From: Anodontia alba
Lineage: Eukaryota > Mollusca > Bivalvia > Lucinida > Lucinidae
Length of the DNA: 64,000 bases
Assembly (NCBI GenBank): GCA_964016985.1
Contig: OZ024830.1
Location: 21,042,387 to 21,106,386 of the forward strand
Direction: 5' to 3'
Part shown: piece after piece, positions 26,703 through 53,374 of the stretch
Position numbering within the stretch: position 1 is the stretch's first letter
Layout: every line of letters starts with the position of its first letter
Notes under the pieces: generated by a model
Databases searched by the model: none
What the model was told of the DNA's origin: nothing
The model's input: only the letters and a program-made list of their open reading frames with translations
Position numbers and translations under genes: made by a program

Positions 26703-26716
26703 GTAAGTATTTCACT

Positions 26717-27080
26717 TACCGTATTCGACTTAATTACCACACTGTGCACTTAGGTTTTTCAAAATTACTGGAAAAACTTGCAGTAAAATATCCACCTAAA
26801 AAGGGCACACTTTATAGAAAGATCAGCAGAGGACTTCATAAGGAGAGCATATAATGATGCTTATGCGTTATTATTTTCTGATTTTCTTTATAAAAACATA
26901 TGTTGTGGGTTCTCATTTGAATTGCCTCGACTTGTCGAGGCAATTCAAAGGAGTACCCATAACATATGTTTTTATAAAGCAGTATATAAAAGTACACTGG
27001 TTGCAATAATCTAAAGCCTACTAAATTGCTTGACTGTGCGCTTATAGGAGCATGTGCGGTAATTAGGTCGAATACAGTAG
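26717..27080. mobile_element. P5 MITE, complete copy
   Basis: Ends TACCGTATTCGACTTAATTA and the inverse of TAATTAGGTCGAATACAGTA, with a central hairpin TTTGAATTGCCTCGACTTG / CGAGGCAATTCAAAGG and P2-like ACATATGTTGTGGG arms. The interior and size match 21600-21910. Confidence 0.75.
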
Positions 27081-27199
27081 ATTATGCATAACTCCAGATA
27101 TGAAGGTTTTTTGTTTTTTTTTAATTTTTTTTTTTCAACAAAAAAGTACTGATATATTTTTATTTCTCTGTGAAATTATATGTTGTGGTAGTTATTAGA

Positions 27200-27413
27200 T
27201 TAACTCTTGTCCTGCTGAACCCGGATATATCCTGTTTATGCAAACAGTGTAGATCCAGATCAGTTGGCTTCTGAAGAAGCCAACTGATCTGGATCTGCAC
27301 TGATTGCCATTCAGTATGTGAATTTATATCAACAATCTGGATCAAGTAATCTGATTGGCTGAAAATTAGAAATGGGTGTGGCATCTTTATTTATTCAGCA
27401 TGACAAGGGTTAA
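27200..27413. mobile_element. P1 palindromic MITE, copy 3, nested in P2 remnant
   Basis: TTAA on both sides (27200-27203, 27410-27413), ends CTCTTGTCCTGCTGAA / TTCAGCATGACAAGGG, and hairpin GATCCAGATCAGTTGGCTTC / GAAGCCAACTGATCTGGATC. The sequence outside (TATATGTTGTGGTAGTTATTAGA ... TGAGTATTCACAAGATATGG) is a P2 palindrome opened at its loop. Confidence 0.85.
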
Positions 27414-27419
27414 TGAGTA

Positions 27420-29264
27420 TTCACAAGATATGGAGAAGTAAGAAAAATATCGTGGGTACCCCTTCTTATATGGAGTCATGATAATGATTCATATTGCCGG
27501 GCTGCAACAAATAACAATTGGTTTCAGTGCATATTACAACAAGAAAGGCCCAGTTCAGCAAACATTCAGGGCTTTTGATATCGTAAGTAGGTTTCTGAAA
27601 GATAAGATATTACTTTGGAAATACAGGCGGACCTCATTGGCAACCAATGGCTCATTTACCCTGGCTAATTCAAAGTCGTGTTTGATTCCTACAAAATTCT
27701 TCCAAAAGCTCAAGAAAACAAATATATAGGGAAATTTTCTTATTTTATCAAGAAATCACATGACGTGTGTACTCATTAGAATCACATCATCGAGTTGATT
27801 CTAATGACTACACTCAACATATTATTGTGTAGAAGATGGAAAAGATTTACCTAAGTTATTGCCATTTGCTTTCTGACCTGGAACCATGATTAACCCTCAG
27901 TGGCTCCATCTACCCATATACATGTATCTAGAACAAATTTCCATGGTCCCAAAGATGTTTGAGCCATTAAGGTTTGACTGTAAAATATCAATATTCTCTA
28001 CATTCCTACACAAAACAAGTCTATAATATTATGGTTAAGGTCCATGGAATTGCATTTCTTGCATACTGGTTAAGGATTTCTGCAAATTACACCGGTGCTA
28101 GCAAATCTTATCTCTCAAACCCTTATCTGTCCTGTAGGAAAGATAAAATCAAGAATTTTCATGTGTTTGATATACACTGGCTGTATAGGCCGTTATGGTA
28201 CGCCATTGTTAAGGTTGACGTCACTGAACTTAATGATGTCACTAAATGTCACGGTATTGTCATCACAATATGGGGGATGTCTGCAATCAAAGTGACTGCA
28301 TTATCAAAAATCCACTTTCAAAAATGAAAGGTATGCAAGAAAAAGAATCTGTCATAGAAAAATTCATCCCTCTGGATCACAGTCTGACATCATTCGGCAA
28401 ACCTTGTGATACCAGACAGTAACCCTCAGTATGGATTTTTCTATCTACCCCTCACGCCCATGATAGATTCTAATAATCATGATAAAATAAGAAAAATTCC
28501 CGAAATAGTTGTTTTCTCGAGTTATTAGAATTTCTTATGGACTCAAAAACTAGTTCAAATTAGCCATGGTAGACAAGCCATCTGTGTTCGAGCTATTGAG
28601 GTTTGATTGTATTCAGATGATAATCTTTTGTTATATGTCCACCAGAACATACCTTGCAGGTACTCTCCAGGGATTGTGCTTTGAGTGACTGGGGCAACAT
28701 CTTTTCCCATTGACTATAATCACCCTGCCAAGCCTGACAATCAAAACTAACTTTGCCTTCAGTTTTCTGGTATTTTCCCCAGCTAAACCTCTCAGGATTA
28801 CACAGGCAAGATCTGTTCAGATCAAATGCTTGCTAGAGTAGGGCATCATAATCTGTTACTCGCTTTCATGCTTGAAGTCTGTAAAGGCATTATAGCCAGT
28901 TTCCTGAGAGTTAAAATGACACTTTGTTTACATCTCTTATTTTTGGCAAAAAGATCTATTTCTGGAATAATTCAAAAGGAATATTTTGTAATCCCTTGCT
29001 TTATGGAAAGCCACCTTCATGTGCCTATGTGTGAATAAATGTAGATGGGACATAATACTTTCCATGTTAAATAAAAATGTCAGCAGATGACATATAGGAA
29101 TACTTATTTGTCCAAGAAAATATAACTTGACATTTTGTGTGAGATGGATCACATGAAATGTAAAGTCTTATTCTCTAGGAAAAACAAGAAAATGTCACTG
29201 ACATTTGTCATCTGCTGAACTCTCCCAGTGTACAGGGGTTAAGTTCTCATGACCATCTCAGTTT
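27420..29264. other. Derlin-2 intron 5, old repeats, no gene
   Basis: Holds a P2-like palindrome (27750-27830), two fragments with TTGAGGTTTGACTGTA-type ends (27900-27985, 28495-28612) and a P4 copy (29040-29215). ORFs at 27478-27729, 27974-28327 and 28826-29038 show no family resemblance. Confidence 0.5.
29040..29215. mobile_element. P4 hairpin MITE, copy
   Basis: TGTCAGCAGATGACATAT and its inverse ATTTGTCATCTGCTGAA lie at the two ends, with AAGAAAATATAACTTGACATT / AATGTAAAGTCTTATTCTC arms inside. Confidence 0.6.
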
Positions 29265-29268
29265 ACTG

Positions 29269-29860
29269 TGTTATGAGCCAGGCGTAACGAGAAAGAAATG
29301 AAAGTGAAACCAGCAACAAGCTTTAATTATTAACAATATTTATTCACAAAAAAATGAGACACGATTCAAAACAAAAGAATGTAAGTAGACAGTACCTTTC
29401 AAGTTTATGTCACAAAGTCCCTCTGAAATAATCCACGAGAATTTATAAAACAAATCCTTTGAATATCAGTTTCTGATCCCACAATTTAATGTTCCTGAAT
29501 TCAGAATTTAAGTCCAGAATGAATAAAATAGTAAAGTAATCCAGTATAGAATAATTTCCAGTGAAAATATACAAAGATGCCCAGATGAAAATCTGTACTC
29601 CTTATATAATATCAAAGAAGGTTCTAGAAAAAGAATTTACTACAAGCATCTCTTATTTTCTAGTTCCAATCAAGAAACTTCTAAATCTTCCATGACATTC
29701 CAAAAACAACTCAGTCCAGAATCAAGGCCGTAAACATCATGTTATTGTAAACATGTTGAACATTCCAGAAAGTTATTTTTGGAAACATAGTAAATAAAGC
29801 TATTTATGGAAACATAGTAAACATGTTGTTTAAAACAATTGAACACCCTGTTATATAACA
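29269..29860 (-). repeat. 3' LTR, 592 bp
   Basis: In element orientation it runs TGTTATATAACAGGG (at 29860) to GGCTCATAACA (at 29269). Read against the other LTR by eye, differences are at about 29274, 29648 and 29728, all transitions. The palindromic end TGTTATATAACA is notable. Confidence 0.93.
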
Positions 29861-29873
29861 CTTCCCCTCTTCA
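29861..29873 (-). other. Polypurine tract
   Basis: On the minus strand the bases just before the 3' LTR read GAAGAGGGGAAG, a purine run where plus-strand synthesis would be primed. Confidence 0.8.
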
Positions 29874-29996
29874 GGGAAAAGAAAGATTTATGTAATAAAG
29901 CTTTCTTTTGCCATAAAATTATCATAAAATAAAATACTGATAAAGGCAATTATTATCTTATATACAGCAAGTTACAGGAAACCACAGATCAAGACA

Positions 29997-32933
29997 TCAT
30001 GCTCTGGACAAGGCATCAGGAATAATATTATCTTTTCCCCTGATATACCTGATGTCAAGATTGTGTTCCTGTAACAACAGGCTCCATCTGAGCAACCTCT
30101 GATTCTTGTTTTTCATCTTATGGATGAAAGTTAGTGGATTGTGATCACTGAAAACAACAATAGGTGAGGACGAAGAAGTCAGATAAACTTCAAAATGTTG
30201 AAGAGCAAGAATGAGAGACAAACATTCTTTCTCTACTGTAGAATAATTCTTATGATGTTTGTTAAACTTTTTCGAAAAGTAACAAACTGGATGATCCACA
30301 CCATTGTCATCCTCTTGCAGTAATACACCACCTGCACCAACATCACTCGCATCTACTGCTAACTTGAATTCTTTATTAAAATTTGGTGCCAAGAGAACCG
30401 GCTCACTTCTCAGTATGGCTTTCAGTTTATCAAAGGCATTCTGACAATCACTGGTCCACTTAAACCTCATTCTTTTACTAAGTAAATTAGTCAGTGGCTC
30501 AGCAATGACAGAAAAATTATTACAGAATTTTCTGTAATAACCGGCCATACCAAGAAACCTCATCAGTTGTCTTTTGCATGTGGGCACCGGAAAATTTGAA
30601 ATAGCTTCAACTTTAGCCTCTATAGGTTTAACCTGACCATGACCCACAACATGTCCTAGAAATGTTAAAGTTGCATGACAGAATTCACTTTTAGCAAGGT
30701 TTATTGTCAATTTTGCTTCACTTAGTTTATCAAAGAATGCTTTGATAGTTCCAAGATGGTGATTCCATTCATCACTGTATATGATGGCATCATCGATGTA
30801 AGCATCGCAATGCTCGAATCCAGCTATTATGGTGTTGATTAAGCGTTGAAATGTTGCTGGAGAGTTTTTCATTCCGAAAGGCATTACTTTATAGTGATAT
30901 AATCCATCAGGAGTAACAAATGCTGAGACCTCTTTGGCTCTTTCTGTGAGAGCAATTTGCCAAAATCCTTTCAGAAGATCAAATTTAGTTATATATTTTG
31001 AATTTCCAACTTTGTCAATACAGTCATCCATTCTTGGTATGGGAAAAGTATCTGTTTTACTCAAATTATTGACCTTCCTGTAATCGGTGCACATCCGATA
31101 TGTTCCATCAGGTTTTGGCACAAGAATGCAAGGTGAACTCCATTCACTTTGACTTGGTTCAATAAAATCATTGTCCAGCAAATACTGAATTTCCTCCTTA
31201 AGATATTTTTGTTTTGTTGGGTTCATTCTATATGGATGTTGTTTGACAGGTTGTGAGTCCTCAACATTCACATCATGATAAATTTTGTCAGTCCTTGTAG
31301 GAATGTCCGGAAATAAGTGTTCATATTGATAAATTAACTGTTTCAGTTCTTTTCTTTGGACTGGATCTAGGTGTGAAAGTTTCTGGTCGAGATCCTTTAG
31401 AATGTCAGAATTCTGAAGTTTTGAAGAAGCAGGATCAGATTTGGTGAATTTCATGTCTTCAGAGTTCATTTCACTTTGTTCCTGAGGGACTGAACTAACA
31501 ACACTAATTGATGTAACAGAAGAGCTATCCCTATCTATGTATTGTTTAAGCATGTTAACATGACATAACTGTTTTTGTTTGCGTCTCCCAGGAGTGTTAA
31601 CAATGTAATTAACATCACTAATCTGTTTATCTACAGTGTAAGGGCCGTAATATCTGGCTTGCAGTGGTTTGCCAGGAATAGGCAAAAGAGCAAGTACCCT
31701 GTCTCCAGGCATGAATTGTCTTTCTTTTGCATTTTCATCATACCAACGTTTCATTTTCCTTTGTGCTGACTTAAGATTGGTCCGAGCAGCTTCACAAGCT
31801 TTAGACAGCCGGTCTTTAAAATCTGATACATACTGAAGTAAGTTCAGAGAACTGTCATCATTTGAGAGAAATTTCTCTTTCAAAAGTTTCAAAGGTCCAC
31901 GCACAGTGTGGCCAAATACCAGCTCATATGGGCTGAAACCAAGAGATTCCTGAACAGATTCTCTAACGGCAAACAACAACAAATGAATGCCTTCATCCCA
32001 ATCTTTTTCAGTGTCAAAGCAGTATGACCTGATCATATTTTTCAGTGTCTGATGAAATCTTTCAAGGGCACCTTGACTTTCAGGATGGTAAGGCGATGAC
32101 TTATATTGAGTAATGCCCAACTCATGCATGACCTGCTGAAAAATTCCTGACATGAAATTTGAGCCCTGATCCGACTGAACAGACTTTGGAAGGCCTACAA
32201 ATGTGAAAAACTTTACCAAAGCCTTAACAGTATTCTTTGTTTTAATATTCCGAAGTGGAATGGCTTCTGGGAAACGTGTAGAAGCACACATTATAGTGAG
32301 AAGATATTCATTACCTGACTTAGTTTTAGGCAAGGGACCAACACAGTCAATAATTATTCTGCTAAAAGGTTCATCAAAAGCAGGTATGGGCTGTAAATGA
32401 GCTTTTGGTATTGTCTGGTTGGGTTTTCCTACCATCTGACAAGTATGGCAAGATTTACAAAATCGAGAAACGTCAGATTTTAACCCTGGCCAGTAAAAAT
32501 GGTTAAGAATTTTATGATAGGTCTTATTTATACCTAAATGACCTGACATGGGAGTGTCACGAGCCAAGTTCAAAATTTCAGGGCGATAAACCCTAGGAAC
32601 CACTATTTGGTGGTTAACAGTCCACTCGTCTTCTGCTGAGACATCAGGAGGACGCCATTTTCTCATTAAAATGCCATTTTTGACATAAAAACAGACTGGG
32701 ACTTGATCTATTTCTTTCTCATCTAAAGCCCTTTCAAGCAAAGGCAAAATTTCAGGATCATTATGCTGTTCCTTACAAAGCTGGGACCTTGACACCAAGT
32801 CATGACCTTGACCTTGGTCATTTAATATTGCAGAGTAATGACTGGACTCTGACTTGTTATGTAACTCCGTCTGTTTGTCAGACAGGCTGGATGAAAGAGA
32901 ATTTGTAATCTCATGTTTAAAAGACTGACCCAA
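29997..32933 (-). CDS. Retrotransposon pol ORF: integrase, RT, RNase H (978 aa)
   Basis: An uninterrupted ORF. Integrase comes first: HHCC zinc site (His132, His140, Cys162, Cys165) and a D-D-35-E core (Asp196, Asp255, Glu291), then a basic C-terminal domain (about 395-465). Reverse transcriptase follows (about 560-760) with LVPKPDGTYRMCTDYRKVN, VMPFGMKNSPATFQ and catalytic YIDD (712-715). RNase H (about 850-978) has Asp861, Glu901/903 and Asp930 and ends at PDALSRA. Integrase before RT is the reverse of ordinary Gypsy pol and is the arrangement known from Gmr1-like elements. It starts in a different frame from gag-protease, overlapping it by 17 nt. Confidence 0.93.
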   Translation of the reverse strand: MGQSFKHEITNSLSSSLSDKQTELHNKSESSHYSAILNDQGQGHDLVSRSQLCKEQHNDPEILPLLERALDEKEIDQVPVCFYVKNGILMRKWRPPDVSAEDEWTVNHQIVVPRVYRPEILNLARDTPMSGHLGINKTYHKILNHFYWPGLKSDVSRFCKSCHTCQMVGKPNQTIPKAHLQPIPAFDEPFSRIIIDCVGPLPKTKSGNEYLLTIMCASTRFPEAIPLRNIKTKNTVKALVKFFTFVGLPKSVQSDQGSNFMSGIFQQVMHELGITQYKSSPYHPESQGALERFHQTLKNMIRSYCFDTEKDWDEGIHLLLFAVRESVQESLGFSPYELVFGHTVRGPLKLLKEKFLSNDDSSLNLLQYVSDFKDRLSKACEAARTNLKSAQRKMKRWYDENAKERQFMPGDRVLALLPIPGKPLQARYYGPYTVDKQISDVNYIVNTPGRRKQKQLCHVNMLKQYIDRDSSSVTSISVVSSVPQEQSEMNSEDMKFTKSDPASSKLQNSDILKDLDQKLSHLDPVQRKELKQLIYQYEHLFPDIPTRTDKIYHDVNVEDSQPVKQHPYRMNPTKQKYLKEEIQYLLDNDFIEPSQSEWSSPCILVPKPDGTYRMCTDYRKVNNLSKTDTFPIPRMDDCIDKVGNSKYITKFDLLKGFWQIALTERAKEVSAFVTPDGLYHYKVMPFGMKNSPATFQRLINTIIAGFEHCDAYIDDAIIYSDEWNHHLGTIKAFFDKLSEAKLTINLAKSEFCHATLTFLGHVVGHGQVKPIEAKVEAISNFPVPTCKRQLMRFLGMAGYYRKFCNNFSVIAEPLTNLLSKRMRFKWTSDCQNAFDKLKAILRSEPVLLAPNFNKEFKLAVDASDVGAGGVLLQEDDNGVDHPVCYFSKKFNKHHKNYSTVEKECLSLILALQHFEVYLTSSSSPIVVFSDHNPLTFIHKMKNKNQRLLRWSLLLQEHNLDIRYIRGKDNIIPDALSRA

Positions 32934-35101
32934 AAGTATCAGTTAAATCAATGTCCCCATCATTCTGTTTTGCTTTCTTTGCCATGGCCCTTGTAACGGC
33001 ACAAGATGGGTAAAGATCAGGGATTTCCTGTTCAATGGGATCAGGTGGCTGATCAATACAAGGTATGTCAGTCAAAAGTGGGTTTACCACAACCTTATCT
33101 CCTGCTAAGTCATTGCCTAACAGTAAGTGAACACCTTTAAAAGGTAAAGAAGGTCGAATACCAACAGCCACTAAACCAGTTACCAAGTCTGAGGATAAAT
33201 AAATGTTATGAAGAGGAACATTAACAAATCCACACTCTACACCCTGAATAAGGACACTTGTCCCAGAAGAAGTCTTCTCAGAAAAAGGCAGAGTATCTGC
33301 TAAAATAAGGGATTGAGAAGCTCCAGTATCTCGTAAGATTTTAATTGGGGTAGACTGGGCATAGTCACTATTTAGTGACACAAAACCATCTGATAAGAAT
33401 GGTTCATAAATCTCCATAACAGAATCAGTCTCAGGCCTTTCGGTCTGGATAGGATCTTCCTCCTTAACACATGACTGTGGTTTTGACCGTAAAGAGGTAA
33501 GGCCAGTAGGTTTAAGCCCCTCTTGTTTTTCTTTCTTTCTTTTCAGATGTAAACATTCAGATATAATATGACCTGTCCTTTTGCAATAATTGCAAATTGG
33601 TTGAGATAAGGGATTTTGATCTTTATTTTCACCAGAAGGTTTGGGTTTGGGAGTAATTGTTTGGCTATGACTGCCAGGTGGATTACTAGGACTATGTTTG
33701 GATCCTGAATGTGGGAAAAATGGTCTTCTAGAGGGATTTGACTTATTAATAAAGGAAACTTTATGTGTTAAAGCATAATCATCTGCAAGTCGAGCTGCAG
33801 CTTCCAAAGTTTCAACCTGTTTCTCATCTAAAAAGGACTTAATGTCTGAATTTATGCACCTTTTGAACTCCTCTACAAGCATGAGCTGCCTAAGTTTTTC
33901 ATGATTAGAGCCAATTTTCTTTGAAGAGCACCACCTGTCAAATAGCTGTTCTTTAGTTCTGGCAAATTCTACATGGATCTGCTCATTTTCTTTCTTACAG
34001 TTCCTAAATTTTTGCCTGTAAGCCTCAGGGACCAACTCATAAGCCTTAAGAATTAATTCCTTTACAGTATCATAACTGGAGCTCTGCTGGACAGTCAGCT
34101 GAGTATAAATTTCTCGAGCCTTCCCAATTATAACACTTTGCAAAAGCAAGGTCCAGTGCTCCTTTGGCCATTTTAAATTTTCTGCTACTTTTTCAAAATG
34201 AAGAAAATATTTGTCAACCTCTTTTTCTTGAAAAGGGGGAACTAATCTGATGTGTTTGGTAATGTCAAAATGAACGCCAGACTCTAAAGGTTGCCGTTTT
34301 ACCGTCATATTTTGCATTTCTAATTCTTTCATTCTTAATTCTGTATCAAATTTTATTTTTTCCCTTTCTATCTGAATTTGTCTTTCTTTTTCTTTCTCTC
34401 TCTCTTCCATTTCCATTCTTTCTTTCTGCATTTGTCTTTCCTTTTCTTTCTCCCTCTCTTCCATTTCCATTCTTTCTTTCTGCACTCGGGGGTGGTCGGG
34501 TGGTGCGAAGGTGCTGTGTATCTTACATCACTGGGGCGTCCAACTGATATTGGCTTACAGTTGCGCAAGGCCTGCTATCCTTGTAGTGGGTAAGGTTAGA
34601 GGGGGAATGTTTTTATTTCTTCTGTTTCTTCACTTTCATTCCTGTTCCTCTTTCTTCCCTGTCCCTCTCTTTCATCTCCTCTACTCTCTCTTCTATCTCT
34701 TTTCTCCCTTTCTCTGGGAGACGACACAAAATGACCCTCAAGGGTTGAAGTGTCGTTAAACCCCAACACAATCAATCTTTCTGCACTCTTTCTTCCATTT
34801 CCATTCTAAGTTTTTCTTGCTCTAATCTTAATTTTTCTAACTCAATTTGCTTCTGAATCTCAAGCTCTCGCATTTGCAAACCTGTCTGTGTAACAAGAAC
34901 AAGAGACAAAGCAGAAGAATCAAGAATTTCCTTATCAACCAAAAATTGGACCAAAATATTTTTTATTTCCTGTTTTAACATGGACTTGTTGACGGTAGTC
35001 AATTCATAGTGAGCAGCAATATCCAACAAATCAGACTTTTTGGCCAAATCTAACAGCTCCTGCGTAGGCGCAGTGATAAAAGCTTGAAGGTCAAATGACA
35101 T
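32917..35101 (-). pseudogene. gag-protease ORF, interrupted by a SINE
   Basis: Read from 35101 down. The N-terminal part (109 codons, 35101-34772) is helical and Lys/Glu-rich. A SINE (34488-34775) then breaks it, and the remainder is open from 34485 to 32917 (522 codons). This remainder has a repeated KERMEMEEREKEK coiled coil, a retroviral-type capsid region (about 110-250), a CCHC zinc knuckle CNYCKRTGHIISEC, and an aspartic protease motif with DTGAS (around 33335). The two pieces lie in the same frame once the insertion with one duplicate is discounted (301 bp), so the interruption is the only visible lesion. As it stands no complete Gag is made from one start. Confidence 0.85.
34488..34775 (+). 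mobile_element. SINE family S1, copy 2, inside gag
   Basis: Same sequence as 8293-8590 (GGGGTGGTCGGGTGGTG head, AACACAATCAA tail). Target duplication TCTTTCTGCACTC at 34475-34487 and 34776-34788 (13 bp). It is opposite in strand to the retrotransposon. Confidence 0.93.
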
Positions 35102-35372
35102 GATTGCTTTTTGCTGGTTTTATCAAGTAAATTTATCAGAGTTTATTTATTGATATTTTTCAAAAGTCAATACTTGCTTTTTTATTATTTACTTATATTT
35201 TTTGAAAGTCAATACTTGTTTTTTATAAAACAAAGATTTTTATAATTACTGAAATTTTTTTGAAAGTCAGTACTTGTTTTATAGCAAACAAATATTTCTT
35301 TTTTTTTCTTTAAAAATCAATATTTGTTTTCTTTAAAAAGCTCAAACTTGTTTTAGCTCAAGAAAATGTTCG

Positions 35373-35390
35373 ATCGCGGACGAGCCCCCA
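35373..35390 (-). other. Primer-binding site, tRNA-Pro type
   Basis: Minus strand reads TGGGGGCTCGTCCGCGAT, five bases after the 5' LTR ends. This differs at one position from the well-known proline-tRNA primer-binding site of gammaretroviruses (TGGGGGCTCGTCCGGGAT). Confidence 0.8.
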
Positions 35391-35395
35391 ATTTC

Positions 35396-35784
35396 TGTTA
35401 CGAGCCAGGCGTAACGAGAAAGAAATGAAAGTGAAACCAGCAACAAGCTTTAATTATTAACAATATTTATTCACAAAAAAATGAGACACGATTCAAAACA
35501 AAAGAATGTAAGTAGACAGTACCTTTCAAGTTTATGTCACAAAGTCCCTCTGAAATAATCCACGAGAATTTATAAAACAAATCCTTTGAATATCAGTTTC
35601 TGATCCCACAATTTAATGTTCCTGAATTCAGAATTTAAGTCCAGAATGAATAAAATAGTAAAGTAATCCAGTATAGAATAATTTCCAGTGAAAATATACA
35701 AAGATGCCCAGATGAAAATCTGTACTCCTTATATAATATCAAAGAAGGTTCTAGAAAAAGAATTTACTACAAGCATTTCTTATT
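35396..35784 (-). repeat. 5' LTR, first piece
   Basis: Identical by eye to 29269-29652 apart from about two transitions. It is cut after TTTCTTATT by the Helitron-like insertion; the rest is at 41410-41612. Confidence 0.9.
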
Positions 35785-36049
35785 AGCTCACCTGAGCCAA
35801 AGGCTCAAGGTGATATATTGTGATCACTCACCGTCCGTCGTCGTCGTCGTCGTCCGTCCGTCCGTCCGTCAGTCCGTTCACAATCTTTAAACAACATCTC
35901 CTCCTAAACCACTGATTGGATTTTGACCAAATTTCACAGGAATGATCCTTGGTTGATCCTCTTTCAAAGTTATTCAAATGGTTCCGGTCCATTGAATATC
36001 TAGGTCAGAGGAGCTAAAAATAGATTTTTTAACTAAAAACTCAAAAATG

Positions 36050-39000
36050 TTTCTTTGGTAATCCTCTACCAAGATTGTTCAAGCCATTTGGATTTGTCAA
36101 AAAAACATGGCCGCCAGGGGGCAGGGCTTATTTTCCCTATATATCTGTATAGAAAACTTTAAAAATCTTCTTGTCAGAAACCACTAGACCGATTTCAATA
36201 TAATGTTGCAGAAATGTTTCTTTGGTGATCCTCTACCAAGATTGTTCGAGACATTTGGATTCGTCAAAAAACATGGCCGGCAGGGGGCGGGGCTTATTTT
36301 CCCTATATATCTATATAGAAAACTTTAAAAATCTTCTCGTCAGAAACCACTGGACCAGTTTCAATATTATTTTGCAGAAATGTTCCTTTGGTAATCCTCT
36401 ACCAAGATTGTTCAAGCCATTTGGATTGGTCAAAAAACATGTCCGCCAGGGGGCGGGGCTTATTTTCCCTATATATCTATATAGAAAACTTTAAAAATCT
36501 TCTTGTCCGAAACCACTGGACCGATTTCAATATAATTTTGCAGAAATGTTCCTTTGGTAATCCTCTACCAAGATTGTTCAAGCCATTTGGATTCATCAAA
36601 AAACATAGCCGCCAGGGGGCGGGGCCTATTTTCCCTATATATCTATATAGAAATCTTTAAAAATTTTCTTGTCAGATACCACTAGACTGATTTCAATATA
36701 ATTTTGCAGAAATGTTCCTTTGGTTATCCTCTACCAAGATTTTTCAAGCCATTTGGATTCGTCAAAAAACATGGCCGCCAGGGGGCGGGGCTTATTTTCC
36801 CTATATATCTATATAGAAAAGTTTAAAAATCTTCTTGTCCGAAACCACTGGGCCGATTTCAATATAATTTTGCAAAAATGTTCCTTTGGTGATCCTCTAG
36901 GAAGATTGTTTAAGCCATTTGGATTCGTCAAAAAACATGGCCGCCAGGGGGCGGGGCTTAGTTTCCCTATATATCTATATAGAAAAGTTTAAAAATCTTC
37001 TTGTCCGAAACCACTGGACCGATTTCAATATAATTTTGCAAAAATGTTCCTTTGGTGATGCTCTACCAAGATTGTTCGAGACATTTAGATTCGTCAAAAA
37101 ATATGGCCACCAGGGGGCAGCGCTTATTTTCCCTATATATCTATATAGAAAACTTCAAAAATCTACTTGTCCGAAACCATTGGACCGATTTCAATATAAT
37201 TTTGCAGAAACCTTCCTTTTGCGATCCTCTACCAAGATTGTTCAAGCCATTTGGATTCGTCAAAAAACATGGCCGCCAGGCTTATTTTCCCTATATATCT
37301 ATATAAAAAACTTTAAAAATCTTCTTGTCCGAAACCACTGGACCGATTTCCATATAATTTTGCAAAATGTTCCTTTGGTGATCCTGTTACAAGATTGTTC
37401 AAGCCATTTGGATTCGTCAAAAAACATGGACGCCAGGGGGCGGGCCTTATTTTCCCTTTATAATCTATATAGAAAACTTTAAAAATCTTCTTGTCCAAAC
37501 CACTGGACCGATTTCAATATAATTTTGCAAAAATGTTCCTTTGGTGATCCTCTACCAAGATTGTTCAAGCCATTTGGATTCATCAAAAAAACATGGCCAC
37601 CAGGGGGCTTGGCTTATTTTCCCTATATATCTATATAGAAAAGTTTAAAAATCTTCTTGTCCGAAACCACTGGACCGATTTCAATATAATTTTGCAAAAA
37701 TGTTCCTTTGGTGATCCTGTTGCAAGATTGTTCAAGCCATTTGGATTCGTCAAAAAACATGGACACCAGGGGGCGGGGCTTATTTTCCCTATATATCTAT
37801 ATAGAAAAGTTTAAAAATCTTCTTGTCCGAAACCACTGGACCGATTTCCATATAATTTTGCAGAAATGTTCCTTTGGTGATCCTCTACCAAGATTGTTCA
37901 AGCCATTTGGATTTGTCAAAAAACATGGCCGCCAGGGGGCGGGGCTTATATATCTATATAGAAAATTTTGATAGTCTTTTCAGAAACCACTTGACCGATT
38001 TCAATGTAACATTGCAGGAATGTTTCTTATGTAACCCTCTATCAAGATTGTTCAAGCCGTCATGATTCGTCAAAAAACATGGCCGCCAGGAGTCAGGGCT
38101 TATTTTCCTTATATATCTATAGAAAACTTTAAAACTCTTCTTGTCAGAAACCACTGAACTGATTTCATTATAACTTTGCAGAAATGTTTCCTTGGTGACC
38201 CTCTACTAAGATTGTTCAAGTAATCATGATTTGTCAAAAAACATGGCTGCCGGGGGCAGGGCTTATTTTCCCTATATATCTATATATAAAACTTTAAAAA
38301 TCTTCTTTTCAGAAACCAATGGACCGATTTCAATACAACTTGGCAGGAATGTTTCTTTGGTGACCCTCTACAAAGATTATACAAGCCGTCATGATTCATC
38401 AAAAAACATGGCCGCTAGGGGGCGGAGCTTATTTTCCCTGTATATCTATATAGAAAACTTTAAAAATCTTCTCGTAAGAAACAGTTGGACCGAGTTCAAT
38501 GTAACTTGGCAGGAATGTTGCTTTGGTGACCTTCTACCAAGATTGTTCAAGCCTTCATGATATGTCAAAAGCCATGGCCCCCAGGGGGGTGGGGGGGGGG
38601 GGGGGCGGGGCTTATTTTTAGTCTATATCTGCATAGAAAATTTTAAAATTCTTATTGTCACATACCCCATGACCGATTTCAATATTACTTGGCTGTAATA
38701 TTGCTTTGATGAACCTCTATCAAGATTGTACAAGCAGTCATGATTCGTCAAAAAACATGGCTGCCATGGGGTGGGGCTTATTTTCCCAATATATCTAAAT
38801 AGAAAACTTTAAAAATCTTCTTGTCAGAAACCACTGAACAGATTTCAATATAACTTGGCAGGAATGTTCCTTTGGTGACCCTCTCCCAAGTTTGTTCAAG
38901 CTTTCATGATTCGTCAAAAAACATGGCCGTTAGGGCGTAGGGCTTTATAGCTATATAAAACTTTTTAAACCACTGGACCAATTTCAATATAACTTGGCAG

Positions 39001-39130
39001 AAATGTTCCTTTGGTGACCCTCTTTTAAGATTCAGTTCAAGTCGTCAAGATTTGTAAAAAAACATGGCCGGGGGTGTGGTGGAGGGGGGTGGTGGTGGTT
39101 AGTGCTATAAAGTTTATACAAAAATCCTAG
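36050..39130 (+). repeat. 166-bp tandem array, first block
   Basis: About 18 monomers with constant 166-bp spacing in the left half, for example CCTTTGGTGATCCTCTACC, TTCAAGCCATTTGGATTCG, CAAAAAACATGGCCGCC, AGGGGGCGGGGCTTATTTTC and CCTATATATCTATATAG in order. Monomers diverge more towards the right (after 38000). The ORFs of about 90 codons here are repeat periodicity, not genes. Confidence 0.95.
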
Positions 39131-39217
39131 AGCAGTGAACTTGGCTGAAACTTCAACAGTAAATATGCAAATCTGTTTGGTCAGGTGAGCAATATAGGAC
39201 CATCATGGTCCTCTTGT

Positions 39218-39655
39218 CTTTTAGGGTGCATCTTTTTCTTCTTTCAAAAAAAAAAAAAAAAAGAAAAGAAAAAAGAAACAAAAGATCGCTGTTTCCTGTT
39301 GACAATTGCAAGGTCAAACGGTGTTACGATAAAAGATCTCATCAGACTAAAAACCAATACTTAAGTATCCGCTACGGTTTCCTCCGATACTGGACAACTT
39401 GGTATTGATTATTTGACTCTATAGGTAAAATCGGTGTACCGTAGAGATACGACGCCTTTCAGTACTGGCTTTTACCAAATACTGTACTGAAACACCGCTT
39501 GCGCATTCGCTTTTTCCAAAAATGAAAGTAGACTTCAGGCGTACATTCGAGATTTTTTATGAGTCCACGGGACTCACCGAGGCTAATGTTTTGAGTCCTC
39601 TGGCGAAATTATGCGTACAGGACGCAGGACGCACGCCTAAAAAAATCACTGACAT
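39218..39655. other. Unique insert between two repeat blocks
   Basis: Lies between an internal Helitron-like terminus (ending 39217) and the second block. It ends CCTAAAAAAATCACTGA and carries GAGTCCACGGGACTCACCGAGG and GGACGCAGGACGC motifs as in 216-422, so part of it may be a relative of that MITE. It also has a long A-rich tract near 39246. Confidence 0.5.
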
Positions 39656-41290
39656 AGAAAAGTTTAAAAATCTTCTTGTCAGAAACCACTGGACCGATTT
39701 CATTAATACTTGGCAGAAATCTTTCCTTGTTGACCCTCTACCAAGATTGTTCAAGTTATCATGATTCATCGAAAAACATGGCCGCCTGGGGGGAGTGGGG
39801 GGGGGGGGGGGGCTTATTCCCTCTATATCTATATAGAAAAGTTTAAAAATCTTCTTGTCAGAAACCAATAGACCAATTTCAATATAACTTGGCAGGAATG
39901 TTGCTTTGGTGACCCTCTACCAAGATTGTTCAAGCCGTCATGATTCATCAAAAAACATGGCCGCTAGGGGGCGGGGCATATTTTCCCTATATATCTATAT
40001 AGAAAAGTTTAAAAATCTTCTTGTAAGAAACAGTTGGCTCGAGTTCAATGTGACAGGAATGTTGTTTTGGTGACCCTGTACCAAGATTGTTCAAGCTGTC
40101 ATGATTCGTCAAAAAACGTGGCCGCTAGGGGGTGGGGCTTATTTTCGCTATATATCTATATAGAAAACTTTAAAAATCTTCTTGTCAGAAACCACTAGAC
40201 CGATTTCATTATAACTTGGTAGAAATCTTTCCTTGTTGACCCTCTACCAAAATTGTTTAAGTTATCATGATTCGTCAAAAAACATGGCCGCCACGGGGAG
40301 GGGCTTATTTTCTCAATATATCTATATAGAAAAGTTTAAAAATCTTCTTGTCAGAAACCAATGGACCGATTTCAATATAACTTGGCAGGAATGTTTCTTT
40401 GGTGACCCTCTACCAAGATTGTTCAAGCCGTCATGATTCGTCAAAAAACATGGCTGCCAGGGGGAGGGGCTTATTTTCCCAATATATCTATATAGACAAG
40501 TTTAAAAATCTTCTTGTCAGAAACCAATGGACTGATTTCAATATAACTTGGCAGGAATGCTTCTTTGGTGACCCTCTACCAAGACTGTTCAGGCCGTCAT
40601 GATTCATCAAAAAACATGGCCGCTAGGAGGCGGGGCATATTTTCCCTATATATCTATATAGAAAAGTTTAAAAATCTTCTCGTAAGAAACCGTTGGATTG
40701 AGTTCAATGTAACTTGACAGGAATGTTGCTTTGGCGACCTTCTACCAAGATTGCGCCCTCATGATACGTAAAAAAACATGGCCGTCAGGGGGCGAGGCTT
40801 ATTTTCCGTGTATATCTGTATAGAAAACTTTAAAATTCTTCTTGTCAGAAACCACCTGACTGATTTCAATATTACTTGGCAGGAATGTTGCTTTGGTGAC
40901 CCTCTACCAAGATTGTTCAAGCAATCATGATTCGTCAAAAAACATGGTTGCTAGGAGTGGGGCTTATTTTCCCTATATATCTAAATAGAAAATTTTAAAA
41001 ATCTTCTTGTCAGAAACCACTGAACCGATTTCAGTATAACTTTGCAGGATTTTTCCTTTGGTGACCCTCTACCAAGTTTATTCAAGTTGTCATGATTTGT
41101 CAAAAAACATGGCTGTTAGGGTGTGGGGCTTAATTTCCCTATATATCTATATAAGACATTTTAAAAATCTTCTTGTCAGAAACCACTGGACCAATTTCAG
41201 TATAACGGCAGAATTGTTCCTTTGGTGACCCTCTTTCAATATTCAGTTCAAGCCATCATGATGCATGAAAAAAACATGGCCGCTGGGGTG
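39656..41290 (+). repeat. 166-bp tandem array, second block
   Basis: About ten monomers of the same family as 36050-39130, with CTTGGCAGGAATGTT in place of TTTTGCAGAAATGTT. Followed by a common terminal region (AGAGCAGTGAACTTGGCTGA) also present before 39217. Confidence 0.92.
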
Positions 41291-41409
41291 CAGGGCTATA
41301 AAATTTATACAAAAATCTTAGAGCAGTGAACTTGGCTGAAACTTCAACAGTAAGTATGTAAAGCTGTTTGCTCAGGTGAGCGATATAGGACGATCATGGT
41401 CCTCTTGTT

Positions 41410-41612
41410 TTCTAGTTCCAATCAAGAAACTTCTAAATCTTCCATGACATTCCAAAAACAACTCAGTCCAGAATCAAGGCTGTAAACATCATGTTATTGT
41501 AAACATGTTGAACATTCCAGAAAGTTATTTTTGGAAACATAGTAAATAAAGCTATTTATGGAAACATAGTAAACATGTTGTTTAAAACAATTGAACACCC
41601 TGTTATATAACA
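41410..41612 (-). repeat. 5' LTR, second piece
   Basis: TTCTAGTTCCAATCAAGAAAC to TGTTATATAACA, matching 29653-29860 with one transition seen. Confidence 0.92.
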
Positions 41613-41661
41613 ACTGCAATAAAGAAACTATATTTTATAGATTTTTCTTTTTCTTTTTTAG

Positions 41662-41839: not shown

Positions 41840-41965
41840 TTTTTTTTTTCTGAGAAAATAAGGCTTGACATTTCATGTGAATCATCAGTAGATGATTCAC
41901 ACGAAATGTCAAGCCTTAGTTTCTTAGAAAAAAAATTTAGAATGTCATCTGCTGATATTTTGAAT
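41840..41965. mobile_element. P4 hairpin MITE, well-preserved copy
   Basis: AAGGCTTGACATTTCATGTG, AATCATC / GATGATT, and CACACGAAATGTCAAGCCTT form a hairpin of more than 60 bp; outer TTCTGAGAAAA / TTCTTAGAAAA arms extend it. If the 3' UTR extends this far it would be in the Derlin-2 mRNA. Confidence 0.75.
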
Positions 41966-42153
41966 GGTACTGTTTAGTGGTTAAGTTTGAGGTCTGCAGA
42001 TAAAAATGATAGTCAAAAATATTTTTTGTTATTTTTGCATGGAAATATATGTTGTGGTTACTTTTTAGAATCACCTCAGTGAGACAGTACTGATTTTGCA
42101 GAAATTACAAAAATATCCTGAATTATCTAGCACTCTGAAAATGGCTCAGATCT

Positions 42154-42159
42154 AATAAA
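42154..42159 (+). terminator. Candidate poly(A) signal for Derlin-2
   Basis: AATAAA, the first such hexamer after the stop codon that I noticed (375 bp downstream). No supporting evidence besides position. Confidence 0.25.
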
Positions 42160-42708
42160 TGTCAGTGGAATTGAAGATCATTGATTTGGGAACTTGGTCA
42201 GAAATTTGTTATACATGTAGCAGTATTGTGAGAAACATGTAAAACTCTCATGAACTGAGTCAGTGAAAGTGAGCTCATATCACAAGATCAGATCACAATT
42301 ATTCTGTAAGTGTAGATCAGATATTCCTTGTGAAGTCTTTATTGTGTGGATGTCTACTGCTAAGAAATGAATTTGTAAGAAATGGTAGTGCAGTAATTCT
42401 TTAAACATAATATTGTTTATGATGATGGAGATGGTGATGATCAACTATGACATCAGCATGGGCATGAGGTGAGCTAATGAAGAGCCATATTTGTTTGGAG
42501 AGGATGTGAGGAGATGGAAGTAATTTTAGGAAGAATATCATACCAATAGACTTTGCCAATTATTATTTGGGCCATGCCAAGTGAAAATGTGTCCTCGAAC
42601 ATGTGAAAAATGCACAGACTCAGGTGCATCCCACGCAAGTGCAAAGTCTCATCCTGGCATTTGGTCTCAATTGATACATTCAATAGTGTTCGATGGTTTT
42701 GTTAGTGG

Positions 42709-42766
42709 ACAGCAAGGGCCCAGATCAGACTGTGCAGCTGCGCAGTCTGATCTGGGCCTTTGCTGT
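42709..42766. repeat. P3-type hairpin
   Basis: ACAGCAAGGGCCCAGATCAG and CTGATCTGGGCCTTTGCTGT pair with few mismatches around ACTGTGCAGCTGCGCAGT. Confidence 0.85.
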
Positions 42767-42959
42767 CGGCATATGCTCAAAGACACATTTGTGCATGGCG
42801 TATGCTCAAAGACACATTTGTGCATTTATTGTATTTATGTGACCCAATACATTACTGGTGATGGGGATTTCCTGATCTCATGATTAATTAAGTTTCTTGT
42901 TTTTAGTAGGTTTGGATACTTATTTAGCCTATACCACTCTCGAGCAAAGTTGTCAGACA

Positions 42960-43085
42960 GCTTGATATTTTAATTCATTTTTCTAATTTTCCCCAGAAAA
43001 CAGGATTTGCATGAAATGTCAAAGCCTGTTTTCTGGGAAAACTAAGAAAATATTTCAAAATGTCATCTGCTAAAATTTTACCCAG
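42960..43085. mobile_element. P4 hairpin MITE, copy
   Basis: CCAGAAAACAGGATTTGC / GCCTGTTTTCTGGG arms with the characteristic TGTCATCTGCTAAAATTTTA end. Confidence 0.6.
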
Positions 43086-44810: not shown

Positions 44811-44834
44811 GAAACAGATCAGCTTTTTTTTTTT

Positions 44835-46011
44835 AGCTCACCTCAGCACAAAGTGCTGAAGGTGAGCTATTGTGATCACCTTGTGTTCGACATCCGTCAT
44901 GCGTCATCAACAATTTCTTCAAATTACATCTCCTCCTAGGCCAATGGCTTGATTTCAAAATAATTACACAGAAATGTTCCTTGGTTGGCCCTCTATCAGA
45001 ATTGCTAAAGTAGTTCTGCTTTGCTGAACAAAATGGCCACCAGAGCTAAGAATAGAAAAACCTTTTAACAACATCTCCTCCTAGGCCAACGACCGATATC
45101 AAAATAATTTCATTGAAATGTTCCTTGGTTGACCCTCTACCTAAATTGCTAAAATGGTTCCACTCCACTGAACAAAATTGCCACCAGAGCTAAAAATAGA
45201 TAAACCTTTAAACGACATCTCCCCCTAGGCCAGTGACCAATTTCAAAATAATTTCACTGAAATGTTTCTTGGGTGACCGTCTACCGAATTGCTAAAATGG
45301 TTCCGCTCCACTGAACAAAATGGCTATCAAAGCTAAAAATAGAAAAACCTTTAAACGAGATCAGTTCCTAGGCCAATGGCCTGATTTCAAAATAATTTCA
45401 CAGAAATGTTACTTGGGTGACCCTCTACCTAAATTGCTAAAATGGTTCCACTCCACAGAACAAAATGGCCACTAGAGCTAAAAATAGAAAAACCTTTAAA
45501 TGACATCTCCCCCTAGGCCATTGACCAATTTCAAAATAACACAGAAATGTTTCTTGGGTGACTGTCTACCAAATTGCTTAAATGGTTCCGCTCCACTGAA
45601 CAAAATGACTATCAAAGCTAAAAATAGAAAAACCTTTAAACGAGATCTGTTCCTAGGCCAATGGCCTGATTTCAGAATAATTTCACAGAAATGTTACTTG
45701 GGTGACCCTCTACCAAAATTGCTAAAATGGTTCCATTCTGCTGAACAGAATGGCCTCCAGAACTCCTTGGTATTCCAGTATCTTCTTTATTGTGAGTTAC
45801 TAATACTACTTACAGTGAATGGCTTCACATTCAGTGGTGCCAAGTCTTTCAAAAAGGTTTTTTTTTTAGCGCTGCAGAGCCAAAGGCCCTGAAGACCACT
45901 GCTAAAACACAAAAACCTTTAATCCGCATCTCTCATGCTCTTCACACCATCACTTTCACGGCTAATCTTAGCTCAGGTGAGCGATTCAGGGCCATCATAG
46001 CCCCCCTTGTT
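44835..46011 (-). mobile_element. Helitron-like element with about 145-bp repeats
   Basis: The left border AGCTCACCTCAGCACAAAGTG / CTGAAGGTGAGCT is the 3' hairpin on the minus strand; the right border is GGTGAGCGATTCAGGGCC...CCTTGT. About six monomers (44905-45770), containing AAACCTTTAAACGACATCTC, AATGTTACTTGGGTGACC and AAAATGGCCACCAGAGC. The monomers resemble the head of the large element (35880-36060). Confidence 0.75.
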
Positions 46012-46522: not shown

Positions 46523-46554
46523 TTCCAGTTCCCAGCTCGGCTACATACATTTTT

Positions 46555-51546: not shown

Positions 51547-53374
51547 AGCTCACCTGAGCACGAAGTGCTCATGGTGAGCTATTGTGGTCAGTCAATGTCC
51601 GTCGTGTGTCGTCCGTCGTGCGGCGTCACCAATTGCTTTAAAAGCCTACTCCTCCTACACCCCTGGGTCAATTGACTTGATACTTGGTAGGAAGCATCGG
51701 GGTGACTTGTAGATCAAAAATAGCTAAAATCGTTCCGATCTGAAATCCAAGATGGCCGCCATCTTGAAAATCTATTTTTCGCTTCTCCTGAACCGAAAGG
51801 CCAATTGACTCCAAACTTGCTAGGAACCATCAGGGTGACTTGTAGATCAAAAATAGCTAAAATCATGCCGATCGAAAATCCAAGATGGCCGCCATCTTGA
51901 ATATCTATTTTTTGCTTCTTCTCCTGAACCGAAAGGCCAGTTGACTCCAAACTTGCTAGGAAGCATCAGGGTGACTTGTAGATCAAAAGTAGCTAAAGTA
52001 GTGCCGATCGGAAATCCAAGATGGCCGACATGGCCGCCATCTTGAAAATCTATTTTTCGCTTCTTCTCCTGAACCGAAAGGCCAATTGACTCCAAACTTG
52101 CTAGGAAACATCAGGGTGACTTGTAGATCAAAAGTAGCTAAAATCGTGCCGATCGGAAATCCAAGATGGCCGCCATGGTGGCCATAATGAAAATCTATTG
52201 TTTGCTTCTTCTCCTGAACCGAAAGGCCAATTGACTCCAAACTTGCTAGGAAGCATCAGGATGACTTGTAGATCAAAAATAGCTAAAATCGTGCCGATCT
52301 GAAATCCAAGATGTCCGCCATCTTGAAAATCTATTTTTCGCTTCTACTCCTAAACCCAAAAGCCAATTGACTCCAAACTTGGTAGGAGGCATTGGGGTGA
52401 CTTATAGATCAAAAATAGCTAAAATCGTGCCTATCGGAAATCCAAGATGGCCGCCATGGCAGCCATCTTGAAAATCTATTTTTCGCTTTTTCTCCTGAAC
52501 CGAAAGGCCAGTTGACTCCAAACTTGGTAGGAAGCATCGGGGTGACTTGTAGATCAAAAATAGCTAAAATCGTGCCGATCGTAAAACCATGATGGGCGCC
52601 ATGGCAGCCATCTTGAAAGTCTATTTTTCGCTTCTTCTCCTGAACCGAAAGGCCAGTTGACTCGAAACTTGGTAGGAAGCATCAGGGTGACTTGTAGATC
52701 AAAAATAGCTAAAATAATGCCGATCGTAAATCCAAGATGGCCGCCATGGCGGCTATCTTGAAAATCTATTTTTCGCTTCTTTCTCCTAAACCCAAGTCAC
52801 TTGACTCGAAACTTAGTAGGAAGCATCAGGGTGACTTGTAGATCAAATATAGCTAAAATCGTTCTGATCAGAAATCCCAGATGACCACCATGGCCGCCAT
52901 CTTGGAAATCTATATTTAGCTTCTTCTCCTGCACCGAAAGGCCAATTGACTCCAAACTTCGTAGGAGACATTGGGGTGACAAAGATCAAAAATAGCTAAA
53001 ATCATGCCAATCGGATATCCAAGATGGCCGCCATGGCAGCCATCTTGAAAATCTATTTTTCGCCTCTTCTCCTGAACTGAAAGGCCAGTTTACTCGAAAC
53101 TTGGTAGGAAGCATTGGGGTGACTCGTAGATCAAAAATAGCTAAAATCGTGCCGATCGTAAATCCAAGCTGGCTGCCATTTAGAGTTTGTTCAAATGATC
53201 ACACTCAATTGACTGGCATGCCATATATCTTCTTCTTCAAAATAAAGAACTGCTTAAATGATGATCTTTTCATTAGTTGCGATGACAGGATTGGAAAAAT
53301 GTTGCATAACATCTGCATATCTGCAGTGGCTATGTCACTCAGGTGAGCGACCCGTGGCCCGTGGGCCTCTTGTT
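51547..53374 (-). mobile_element. Helitron-like element with about 142-bp repeats
   Basis: The left border hairpin AGCTCACCTGAGCACGAAG / TGCTCATGGTGAGCT and right border GGTGAGCGACC...GGCCTCTTGTT match the other Helitron-like copies. About eleven monomers (51640-53165), each with GGGTGACTTGTAGATCAAAA, TAGCTAAAATCGTGCCGATC, AAATCCAAGATGGCCGCC, ATCTTGAAAATCTATTTTTC and CTCCTGAACCGAAAGGCC. It sits inside a P5 MITE, whose halves (GCTTGTGGGTACTTGTT and AGAACTGCCTCTGTGAGG) flank it. Confidence 0.8.

What the first reader, a model, noticed from the sequence alone, without database searches (positions are those of the whole stretch)
36050..41290. Helitron-borne 166-bp array repeating a CTCF-like core site
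Seen: most early monomers carry TGGCCGCCAGGGGGCGGGG or close variants (near 36112, 36276, 36442, 36608, 36774, 36940, 37428, 37761, 37927); two carry TGGCCACCAGGGGGC (near 37106 and 37596, the second less close downstream). Known: the animal CTCF core is CCASYAGRKGGC, and transposons such as rodent SINE B2 have spread CTCF sites. Inference: the array may be a dense cluster of CTCF sites at about one per nucleosome, all in the same orientation, inside Derlin-2 intron 5. The motif degrades in the second block.
Basis: partly seen in the sequence, partly recalled or inferred. Interest (0 to 1): 0.75.

Follow-up and report, generated by a model that had tools for sequence, protein, structure and literature searches.

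The report
CTCF-like sites in transposon-borne tandem repeats
A mobile element in a clam-like genome carries a repeated DNA sequence that closely matches the docking site of the chromatin-folding protein CTCF; thousands of copies are spread through the genome, but the site decays much like ordinary DNA, so it looks like an accidental, probably mostly silent reservoir of docking sites rather than a maintained control region.

Summary
The 166-bp array (36045-41297) has 16 CTCF-type sites of at least 16.4 bits (p about 1e-6), all on the + strand, against a mean of 0.01 in 200 shuffles; 11 of 12 first-block monomers and 5 of the other 17 are strong. It lies in a HINE (non-autonomous Helentron) in Derlin-2 intron 5 of a bivalve, nested in one LTR of a retrotransposon whose other LTR is the empty site. 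The consensus 19-mer occurs 13,152 times in the genome, reversed control 0; by extrapolation there are about 42,000-54,000 strong sites. The host has a CTCF with fingers 3-5 matching human at 12 of 12 contact positions, finger 6 at 1 of 4. Against function: over 322 monomers from 25 loci, changes in the motif are not biased to what CTCF tolerates (P = 0.55) and its CpGs decay like others, though non-CpG C/G columns are slightly better kept. Most likely a passively amplified, methylation-gated latent CTCF site. Occupancy and methylation are untested.

The parts
35785..41407 (+). HINE (non-autonomous Helentron) insertion; exact ends ambiguous by up to two T
   Evidence: Absent from the other LTR copy: 29269-29657 and 29650-29860 (one continuous stretch) align to 35396-35784 and 41402-41612 at 99.5 and 99.1%; end letters
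35785..35877 (+). left end: 5' subTIR CTCACCTGAGCC (35787-35798), its inverted repeat (35802-35813), CCGT-type microsatellite (35831-35877)
   Evidence: sequence; microsatellite; left end found in 19 of 20 other loci; layout as described for Cg_HINE (PMC7492417)
36045..39100 (+). array block 1, 19 anchored monomers of about 166 bp
37104..37122 (+). best CTCF-type core, TGGCCACCAGGGGGCAGCG, 29.3 bits
36772..36790 (+). consensus CTCF-type core TGGCCGCCAGGGGGCGGGG, 25.6 bits (also at 36938 and 37926)
   Evidence: 13,152 exact copies in the genome
39101..39224 (+). internal copy of the right end (perfect palindrome GGACCATCATGGTCC), 91% identical to 41292-41415
   Evidence: D7
39225..39654 (.). 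about 430 bp of unrelated DNA between the two array blocks; 0 of 20 other HINE loci have it
39655..41291 (+). array block 2, 10 anchored monomers, more diverged; 4 of 10 strong CTCF scores
41292..41407 (+). right end: 3' subTIR GCTCAGGTGAGC (41370-41381) and palindrome GGACGATCATGGTCC (41388-41402, one mismatch); found in 18 of 20 other loci
29269..29860 (-). LTR of an LTR retrotransposon, unfilled: the empty site of the HINE
35396..41612 (-). second LTR of the same retrotransposon, holding the HINE; ACTG flanks the whole element on both sides
26703..41661 (+). intron 5 (last intron) of Derlin-2
   Evidence: exons matched by tblastn; protein 84-87% identical to three named clam Derlin-2 proteins
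44835..46011 (+). second HINE (bounds approximate) with a 144-bp array; best-kept box AAAATGGCCACCAGAGCT (no GGGGGC); comparison element
51547..53373 (+). third HINE (bounds approximate) with a 145-bp array; box AAGATGGCCGCCAT in 6 of 11 copies (no GGGGGC); comparison element

Best explanation
This is a HINE whose 166-bp monomer by accident holds a CTCF-grade core. The half ATGGCC(G/A)CCA is a box also seen, in varying states of decay, in two other HINE monomer families of this window; in this family GGGGGCGGGG completes the core (that the half is the older part is inferred). Rolling-circle transposition and tandem duplication then copied it tens of thousands of times (shown: 13,152 exact copies, orientation, spacing; extrapolated: total). 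The host CTCF could probably read the AGGGGGC half (inferred from identical finger 3-5 contacts). Most copies are probably not bound in normal tissue, because the CCG form puts a CpG on the cytosine whose methylation blocks CTCF, and the decay of the monomer's CpGs points to germline methylation (inferred). Deamination then either breaks the site (CTG) or turns it into a methylation-proof CCA site, as seen at 37104, 37594 and 37760. The array reached Derlin-2 recently and already diversified, so no Derlin-2-specific role is expected.
For: Match far beyond chance. 13,152 exact copies, control 0; CCA form 2,118, CTG form 1,533, controls 0. In 25 loci, 193 strong sites lie in 389 monomer hits, all 193 on the monomer strand, 0 in the rest of the 186 kb. 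No CTCF-shaped constraint: 337 inferred changes, mean score change -3.65 against -3.63 expected, P = 0.55; damaging changes 1.19 times expectation; CpG steps per column 36.2 in the motif, 34.8 outside. For a 20-locus version with 255 events, simulated power was 0.95 to see 40% of middle and damaging changes removed and 0.42 for 20%. Half-site in HINE B and C. Host CTCF. Methylation of C at core position 2 inhibits binding in vitro (PMC8084297, passages); oyster helitrons and tandem repeats have about twice background methylation (PMC4378273, passages). Recent insertion: LTR flanks differ at about 3 of 592 bases, whereas first-block monomers differ from their consensus by 6% on average.
Against: Non-CpG C/G columns are slightly more often intact in the motif (0.918 against 0.878, locus bootstrap +0.027 to +0.051), though inferred changes per column are similar (15.8 and 17.0). 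In this array's first block the 10 distinct changes are CTCF-tolerant (P = 0.006), the opposite of the remaining monomers (P = 0.994; all together P = 0.68). CCA exceeds CTG 2,118 to 1,533, which could be read as favouring bound sites; the matched control counts could not be obtained. The half-site in HINE B is exact in only 1 of 5 boxes found. Methylation was not measured.
Confidence: 0.6

Rival explanations
1. The arrays are working CTCF clusters: CTCF binds many monomers, and the one-way array stops cohesin or insulates, here inside Derlin-2 intron 5.
For: Near-consensus cores in one orientation, a host CTCF with 12 of 12 finger 3-5 contacts, a CCCTC-like motif enriched at domain boundaries in a squid (PMC9023564, passages), and first-block tolerance P = 0.006.
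Against: No CTCF-shaped constraint over 25 loci; a methylation-sensitive CpG in the core; the insertion is recent; tens of thousands of sites would outnumber the genome's other CTCF-type cores of one tested form (265 matches to CCNNNAGRTGGCGC against 71 for the reversed control).
Confidence: 0.17
2. The host CTCF does not read this sequence at all; the match to the vertebrate matrix is irrelevant, because fingers 6 and 7 differ.
For: Finger 6 contacts 1 of 4 and finger 7 2 of 4 identical to human; no constraint.
Against: Fingers 3-5 are unchanged at the contact positions, and an Asp in finger 7 and a Glu in finger 3 are kept. AGRTGGCGC cores with 5' CC are 3.7 times their reversed control in this genome, though some of these look like repeats.
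Confidence: 0.13
3. The GC-rich island is a promoter part (GC box GGGGCGGGGC followed by a TATA-like CTATATATCTATATAG) used by SP/KLF factors.
For: Both lie in the consensus monomer; the TATA-like stretch lies among the most conserved windows.
Against: GGGCGG is kept in 11 of 29 monomers, GGGGCGGGGC in 9, the TATA-like 16-mer in 11, against 16 strong CTCF scores. No expression data.
Confidence: 0.05
4. The ATGGCC(G/A)CCA box is kept for the element itself (replication, array expansion or capture), and CTCF-likeness is a by-product.
For: The box recurs in three HINE families of this window; two conserved segments are shared among dissimilar oyster HINE monomers (PMC7492417, section text; letters not seen).
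Against: The 19-bp motif that contains it is not better kept than the rest of the monomer; families A and B also share another segment around GAAATGTTCCTT...CTCTACCAA, so the box is not special. I know of no element protein that binds it.
Confidence: 0.05

Closest known systems
Cg_HINE elements of the Pacific oyster (Helentron-borne arrays, several related to the 166-bp Cg170/HindIII satellites; PMC7492417)
   Same: Left end with subTIR, inverted repeat and GTCC-type microsatellite, array of about 166-bp monomers, right end with subTIR and palindrome.
   Different: Long array here (31.5 copies; the oyster cluster averages are at most about 5, its longest 29.3) and a CTCF-type core; the paper's main text does not mention CTCF (0 occurrences). 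Monomer letters of the oyster families were not seen.
TE-dispersed CTCF sites of mammals, such as rodent SINE B2 (B2 from the finding and recall; PMC6598467 passages cite up to 25% of CTCF, NANOG and OCT4 sites of human and mouse embedded in TEs)
   Same: A mobile element carries and disperses a CTCF-grade core.
   Different: Helentron instead of SINE, many sites per element in a tandem array, no occupancy data, and no sign of CTCF-shaped selection.
ISX Helitron of Drosophila miranda, which dispersed the binding motif of the dosage-compensation complex (PMC6598467, passages)
   Same: A Helitron family disperses a protein-binding motif.
   Different: There binding and function are reported; here no constraint was found and binding is unknown.
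DXZ4 macrosatellite (tandem repeat bound by CTCF on the inactive X; PMC3491370 and PMC3218863, starts of abstracts only)
   Same: A tandem array with CTCF sites whose binding depends on chromatin state.
   Different: 3-kb units at one X-linked locus with shown binding; here 166-bp units in mobile elements across the genome.

Membership tests
HINE (non-autonomous Helentron) | 5' subTIR with adjacent complementary inverted repeat | tested here: met
   CTCACCTGAGCC at 35787-35798 and GGCTCAAGGTGA at 35802-35813; left end in 19 of 20 other loci
HINE (non-autonomous Helentron) | microsatellite after the left end, then tandem repeats | tested here: met
   CCGT-type microsatellite 35831-35877 and the 166-bp array
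HINE (non-autonomous Helentron) | 3' subTIR followed by a palindrome | tested here: met
   GCTCAGGTGAGC 41370-41381 and GGACGATCATGGTCC 41388-41402, one mismatch; right end in 18 of 20 loci
HINE (non-autonomous Helentron) | insertion at T|T without target-site duplication (rule recalled) | tested here: inconclusive
   filled and empty LTR compared: insertion inside a T run; no duplication longer than TT, but TT itself cannot be told from element letters
HINE (non-autonomous Helentron) | mobilised by an autonomous Helentron | not tested
   no search for Rep/helicase partners was made
CTCF binding site | match to the vertebrate CTCF matrix beyond chance | tested here: met
   matrix counts recalled
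CTCF binding site | a CTCF in the host able to read it | tested here: inconclusive
   CTCF present on C7; fingers 3-5 12 of 12 contacts identical, finger 6 1 of 4, finger 7 2 of 4
CTCF binding site | occupancy in chromatin | not testable with these tools
   no ChIP-seq or CUT&RUN held
selected (exapted) TE-borne CTCF site | core more conserved, or changed more tolerantly, than the rest of the element | tested here: not met
   P = 0.55, damaging changes 1.19 times expectation, 97 of 147 windows more conserved; small excess at non-CpG C/G columns noted there

The most novel reading that the evidence does not exclude
A Helentron family has seeded a bivalve genome with tens of thousands of one-way, nucleosome-spaced CTCF cores that are locked by methylation of a CpG in the core; methylation decay unlocks a fraction as methylation-proof CCA sites, so element ageing itself creates new CTCF sites, and loss of methylation would expose a huge CTCF sink.
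Probability: 0.15. Interest if true: 0.8.

Novelty: new variant of a known kind. Interest (0 to 1): 0.5.

Why it matters
CTCF use outside vertebrates and flies is an open question, and spiralians including molluscs have very few data (reviews PMC10658181 and PMC10658182, passages). A natural set of tens of thousands of related sites differing by single bases and by CpG state would let one CUT&RUN plus methylation experiment measure the clam CTCF preference and its methylation dependence in vivo. It also warns that CTCF motif scans of genomes with such HINEs could be dominated by their arrays. I saw no report of CTCF sites in Helentron arrays or bivalve satellites in the listings of my searches (one search listed 15 of 17 papers, 25 of 38; open-licence PMC papers only).

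Tried and rejected
Rejected: chance match; growth of the array at Derlin-2 after insertion as the source of its diversity (6% from consensus against about 0.5% between LTRs); a motif kept by CTCF-shaped selection; block-A tolerance as evidence for function (P = 0.006 is reversed in the rest of the array and absent over other loci).

Led nowhere: 30- and 29-base pieces of the monomer in viral contigs and genome contigs gave 0 exact matches. The homology search with human CTCF fingers listed mainly vertebrate proteins and no named mollusc among the 120 shown, probably because full-length CTCF exceeds its length limit. Control counts for CpG decay outside the motif (GGATTCATC..., GGATTTGTC...) and for CCRSYAGGGGGC did not complete. 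In one search I indexed helix position -1 wrongly; one search is the corrected table, while the power figures do not depend on it.

Rows dropped: one search used 27 of 29 monomers (without 39065 and 41277); one search used 23 of 29 monomers (without 37270, 38244, 38575, 39065, 39779 and 40945, which have indels in the motif or its surroundings); of 389 monomer hits, 67 covering fewer than 140 of 165 columns were dropped. Sampling: 20 loci (L025-L044) came from the exact-motif list, a bias; I then added the 5 loci (L045-L049) that the motif-blind list shows in C1:0-10.82 Mb but the exact-motif list does not. All 20 first loci are also in the motif-blind list.
Full report
What is there. The window is from a bivalve, probably a heterodont (taxonomy recalled): the spliced Derlin-2 (six exons, 242 aa, GT-AG introns) has its best named relatives in Ruditapes (87%), Mercenaria (87%) and Mactra (84%), with one unnamed sequence at 95%. 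Intron 5 (26703-41661) holds a tandem array at 36045-41297 (period 166, 31.5 copies). I anchored 29 monomers.

The carrier. The array lies in an element with the layout of HINEs as described for the Pacific oyster (PMC7492417, part of the text and passages): left subTIR with inverted repeat, GTCC-type microsatellite, array, right subTIR and palindrome. The clinching fact is an empty site: 35396-35784 and 41402-41612 match one continuous stretch at 29269-29860 at 99.5 and 99.1%, broken at the element (ends). The matching stretches begin with TGTTA and end with TAACA, are flanked outside by the same ACTG, and enclose two long minus-strand frames of 978 and 522 aa with integrase/RT/RNase-H-like and gag-like sequence (domain names by eye, no profile search), so they are read as the two LTRs of one retrotransposon. 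The HINE then entered one LTR after the retrotransposon had landed in the intron. LTR parts differ at about 3 of 592 bases (two in the left piece, one in the right; the second right-hand mismatch is the junction itself), whereas first-block monomers differ from their consensus by 6% on average and the others by 12%, gaps counted. The array therefore most likely arrived already diversified. It has two right ends (39101-39224 and 41292-41415, 91%) with about 430 bp of unrelated DNA between blocks, which none of 20 other loci has; read-through past the first end is a plausible cause (inference).

The motif. With the vertebrate CTCF matrix (MA0139.1, counts recalled) the array has 16 sites at or above 16.4 bits against a mean of 0.01 in 200 dinucleotide shuffles. 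The consensus scores 25.6 of 31.2 bits; 0 of 5,000 shuffled monomers, 0 of 20,000 shuffles of the GC-rich island (each of two kinds) and 0 of 20,000 column-permuted matrices reach that. The best site, 37104, has 29.3 bits. Sites at or above 16.4 bits are all on the + strand. Strong sites: 11 of 12 monomers in 36108-37926, 5 of the other 17.

Origin of the motif. Two more HINEs lie in the window (about 44835-46011, 144-bp monomers; about 51547-53373, 145-bp monomers). Their monomers carry, at the corresponding place, forms of ATGGCCACCAGAGCT (exact in 1 of 5 boxes found) and AAGATGGCCGCCAT (exact in 6 of 11): the first half of the CTCF core without GGGGGC, with CTCF scores of at most 5.0 and at most -5.6. 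Families A and B also share another segment. The half is thus probably older than the CTCF-likeness; of the three, only this family completes the core.

Genome-wide. In the window's own assembly (1,862,613,979 bases) the consensus 19-mer occurs 6,743 + 6,409 = 13,152 times, reversed control 0. The CCA form occurs 2,118 times and the CTG form 1,533, controls 0. A 22-mer from another part of the monomer, without CpG, occurs 20,580 times. In 25 loci (186 kb) there are 193 strong sites within 389 monomer hits, all on the monomer's strand, and none in the rest; scaling by the 19-mer or the 22-mer gives about 42,000 or 54,000 strong sites. These are rough: the loci come from the first 11 Mb of one contig.

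Is it kept? No, as far as these tests reach. In this array 102 of 147 other 19-bp windows are more conserved than the motif (138 of 147 in the first block). A test of whether changes in the motif are those CTCF tolerates gave P = 0.006 for the first block, P = 0.994 for the rest and 0.68 together. For independent copies I took 20 loci from the exact-motif list and 5 that only the motif-blind list shows. On a tree built from columns outside the motif, 337 inferred changes have a mean score change of -3.65 against -3.63 expected from the change spectrum outside (P = 0.55); tolerated, middle and damaging changes are 0.95, 0.95 and 1.19 times expectation; steps per column are 15.8 and 17.0 (non-CpG C/G, motif and outside) and 36.2 and 34.8 (CpG). 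Against this, simple identity at non-CpG C/G columns is a little higher in the motif (0.918 and 0.878; interval of the difference 0.027-0.051) (all). The 20-locus versions gave P = 0.54 (with 328 locus-level changes against 412 expected, a uniform deficit over tolerance classes) and 0.73. A power run for 255 events gave 0.95 for loss of 40% of middle and damaging changes, 0.42 for 20%, so weak constraint is not excluded. Gene conversion between monomers would violate the tree model.

Can the host read it? The genome has a CTCF on C7 in three finger exons; spliced, its best relative among solved structures is CTCF (7w1m chain H, 349 bits). At helix positions -1, 2, 3 and 6 (convention recalled), fingers 3, 4 and 5 agree with human at 12 of 12, finger 6 at 1 of 4, finger 7 at 2 of 4. 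Fingers 3-7 read the core; the cytosine at core position 2 is read by an aspartate that prefers the unmethylated base, and the one at position 12 by a glutamate (PMC8084297, passages). An Asp in finger 7 and a Glu in finger 3 are kept here; that these are the two residues meant is recalled. In the HINE core position 2 is in a CpG (CCG), unlike the usual CCA.

Why silent, and why gated. CpG columns of the monomer change about twice as often as other C/G columns, in and out of the motif alike, the mark of germline methylation (inference); oyster helitrons have about twice background methylation (PMC4378273, passages). So most CCG copies are expected to be methylated and closed to CTCF. Decay on one strand breaks the site; decay on the other makes CCA, which scores 2.7 bits higher and has no CpG at position 2. 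Three of the 29 monomers here are of this kind (37104, 37594, 37760). Genome-wide CCA exceeds CTG by 1.38, but inferred changes at the control CpGs also scatter (C>T to G>A 26:18 and 18:24; motif 18:27 and 19:26), so no preference is claimed.

Prior knowledge. TE-borne CTCF sites and Helitron-borne binding sites are known kinds (PMC6598467, passages), as are tandem CTCF arrays (DXZ4; starts of abstracts) and HINE arrays in oysters. I saw no report of CTCF cores in Helentron arrays or bivalve satellites in the listings (open-licence PMC papers only). In molluscs a CCCTC-like motif is reported at squid domain boundaries (PMC9023564, passages), and echinoderm work questions orientation-dependent loops outside vertebrates (PMC13317027, passages), which weakens any inference from the shared orientation.

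Noticed in passing
51547-53373: A HINE with a 145-bp array: 6 of 11 boxes read AAGATGGCCGCCAT and 8 of 11 are followed by GCCATCTTG, a near-palindromic pair resembling the YY1 site (YY1 consensus recalled).
   Followed up: partly
29269-41612: LTR retrotransposon on the minus strand with near-identical LTRs, ACTG on both outer sides, and a pol frame in which integrase-like sequence precedes reverse transcriptase (reminiscent of GmR1-type Gypsy, recalled).
   Followed up: partly
39101-39654: Internal right end of the HINE followed by about 430 bp of unrelated DNA not seen in 20 other loci: possible read-through capture by a Helentron.
   Followed up: partly
G000 C7 about 60804388-60809942, minus strand (in L022): Host CTCF: finger 6 helix QSNSLKA instead of human QSGTMKM, so the 5' half of the clam CTCF motif may differ from the vertebrate one.
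   Followed up: partly
G000, pattern CCNNNAGRTGGCGC: 265 matches against 71 for the reversed control; CCCAAAGGTGGCGC recurs many times among the 100 listed and looks like a repeat family.
   Followed up: no
41842-41961 and 29074-29197: Inverted-repeat sequence (TTGACATTTCATGTGAATCATC...) just outside both ends of the retrotransposon, 69-73% alike.
   Followed up: no
G000 whole genome: 106 places match the CTCF fingers at E below 1e-20, some several per gene: many multi-finger C2H2 stretches, several in clusters (C6, C15, C18).
   Followed up: no
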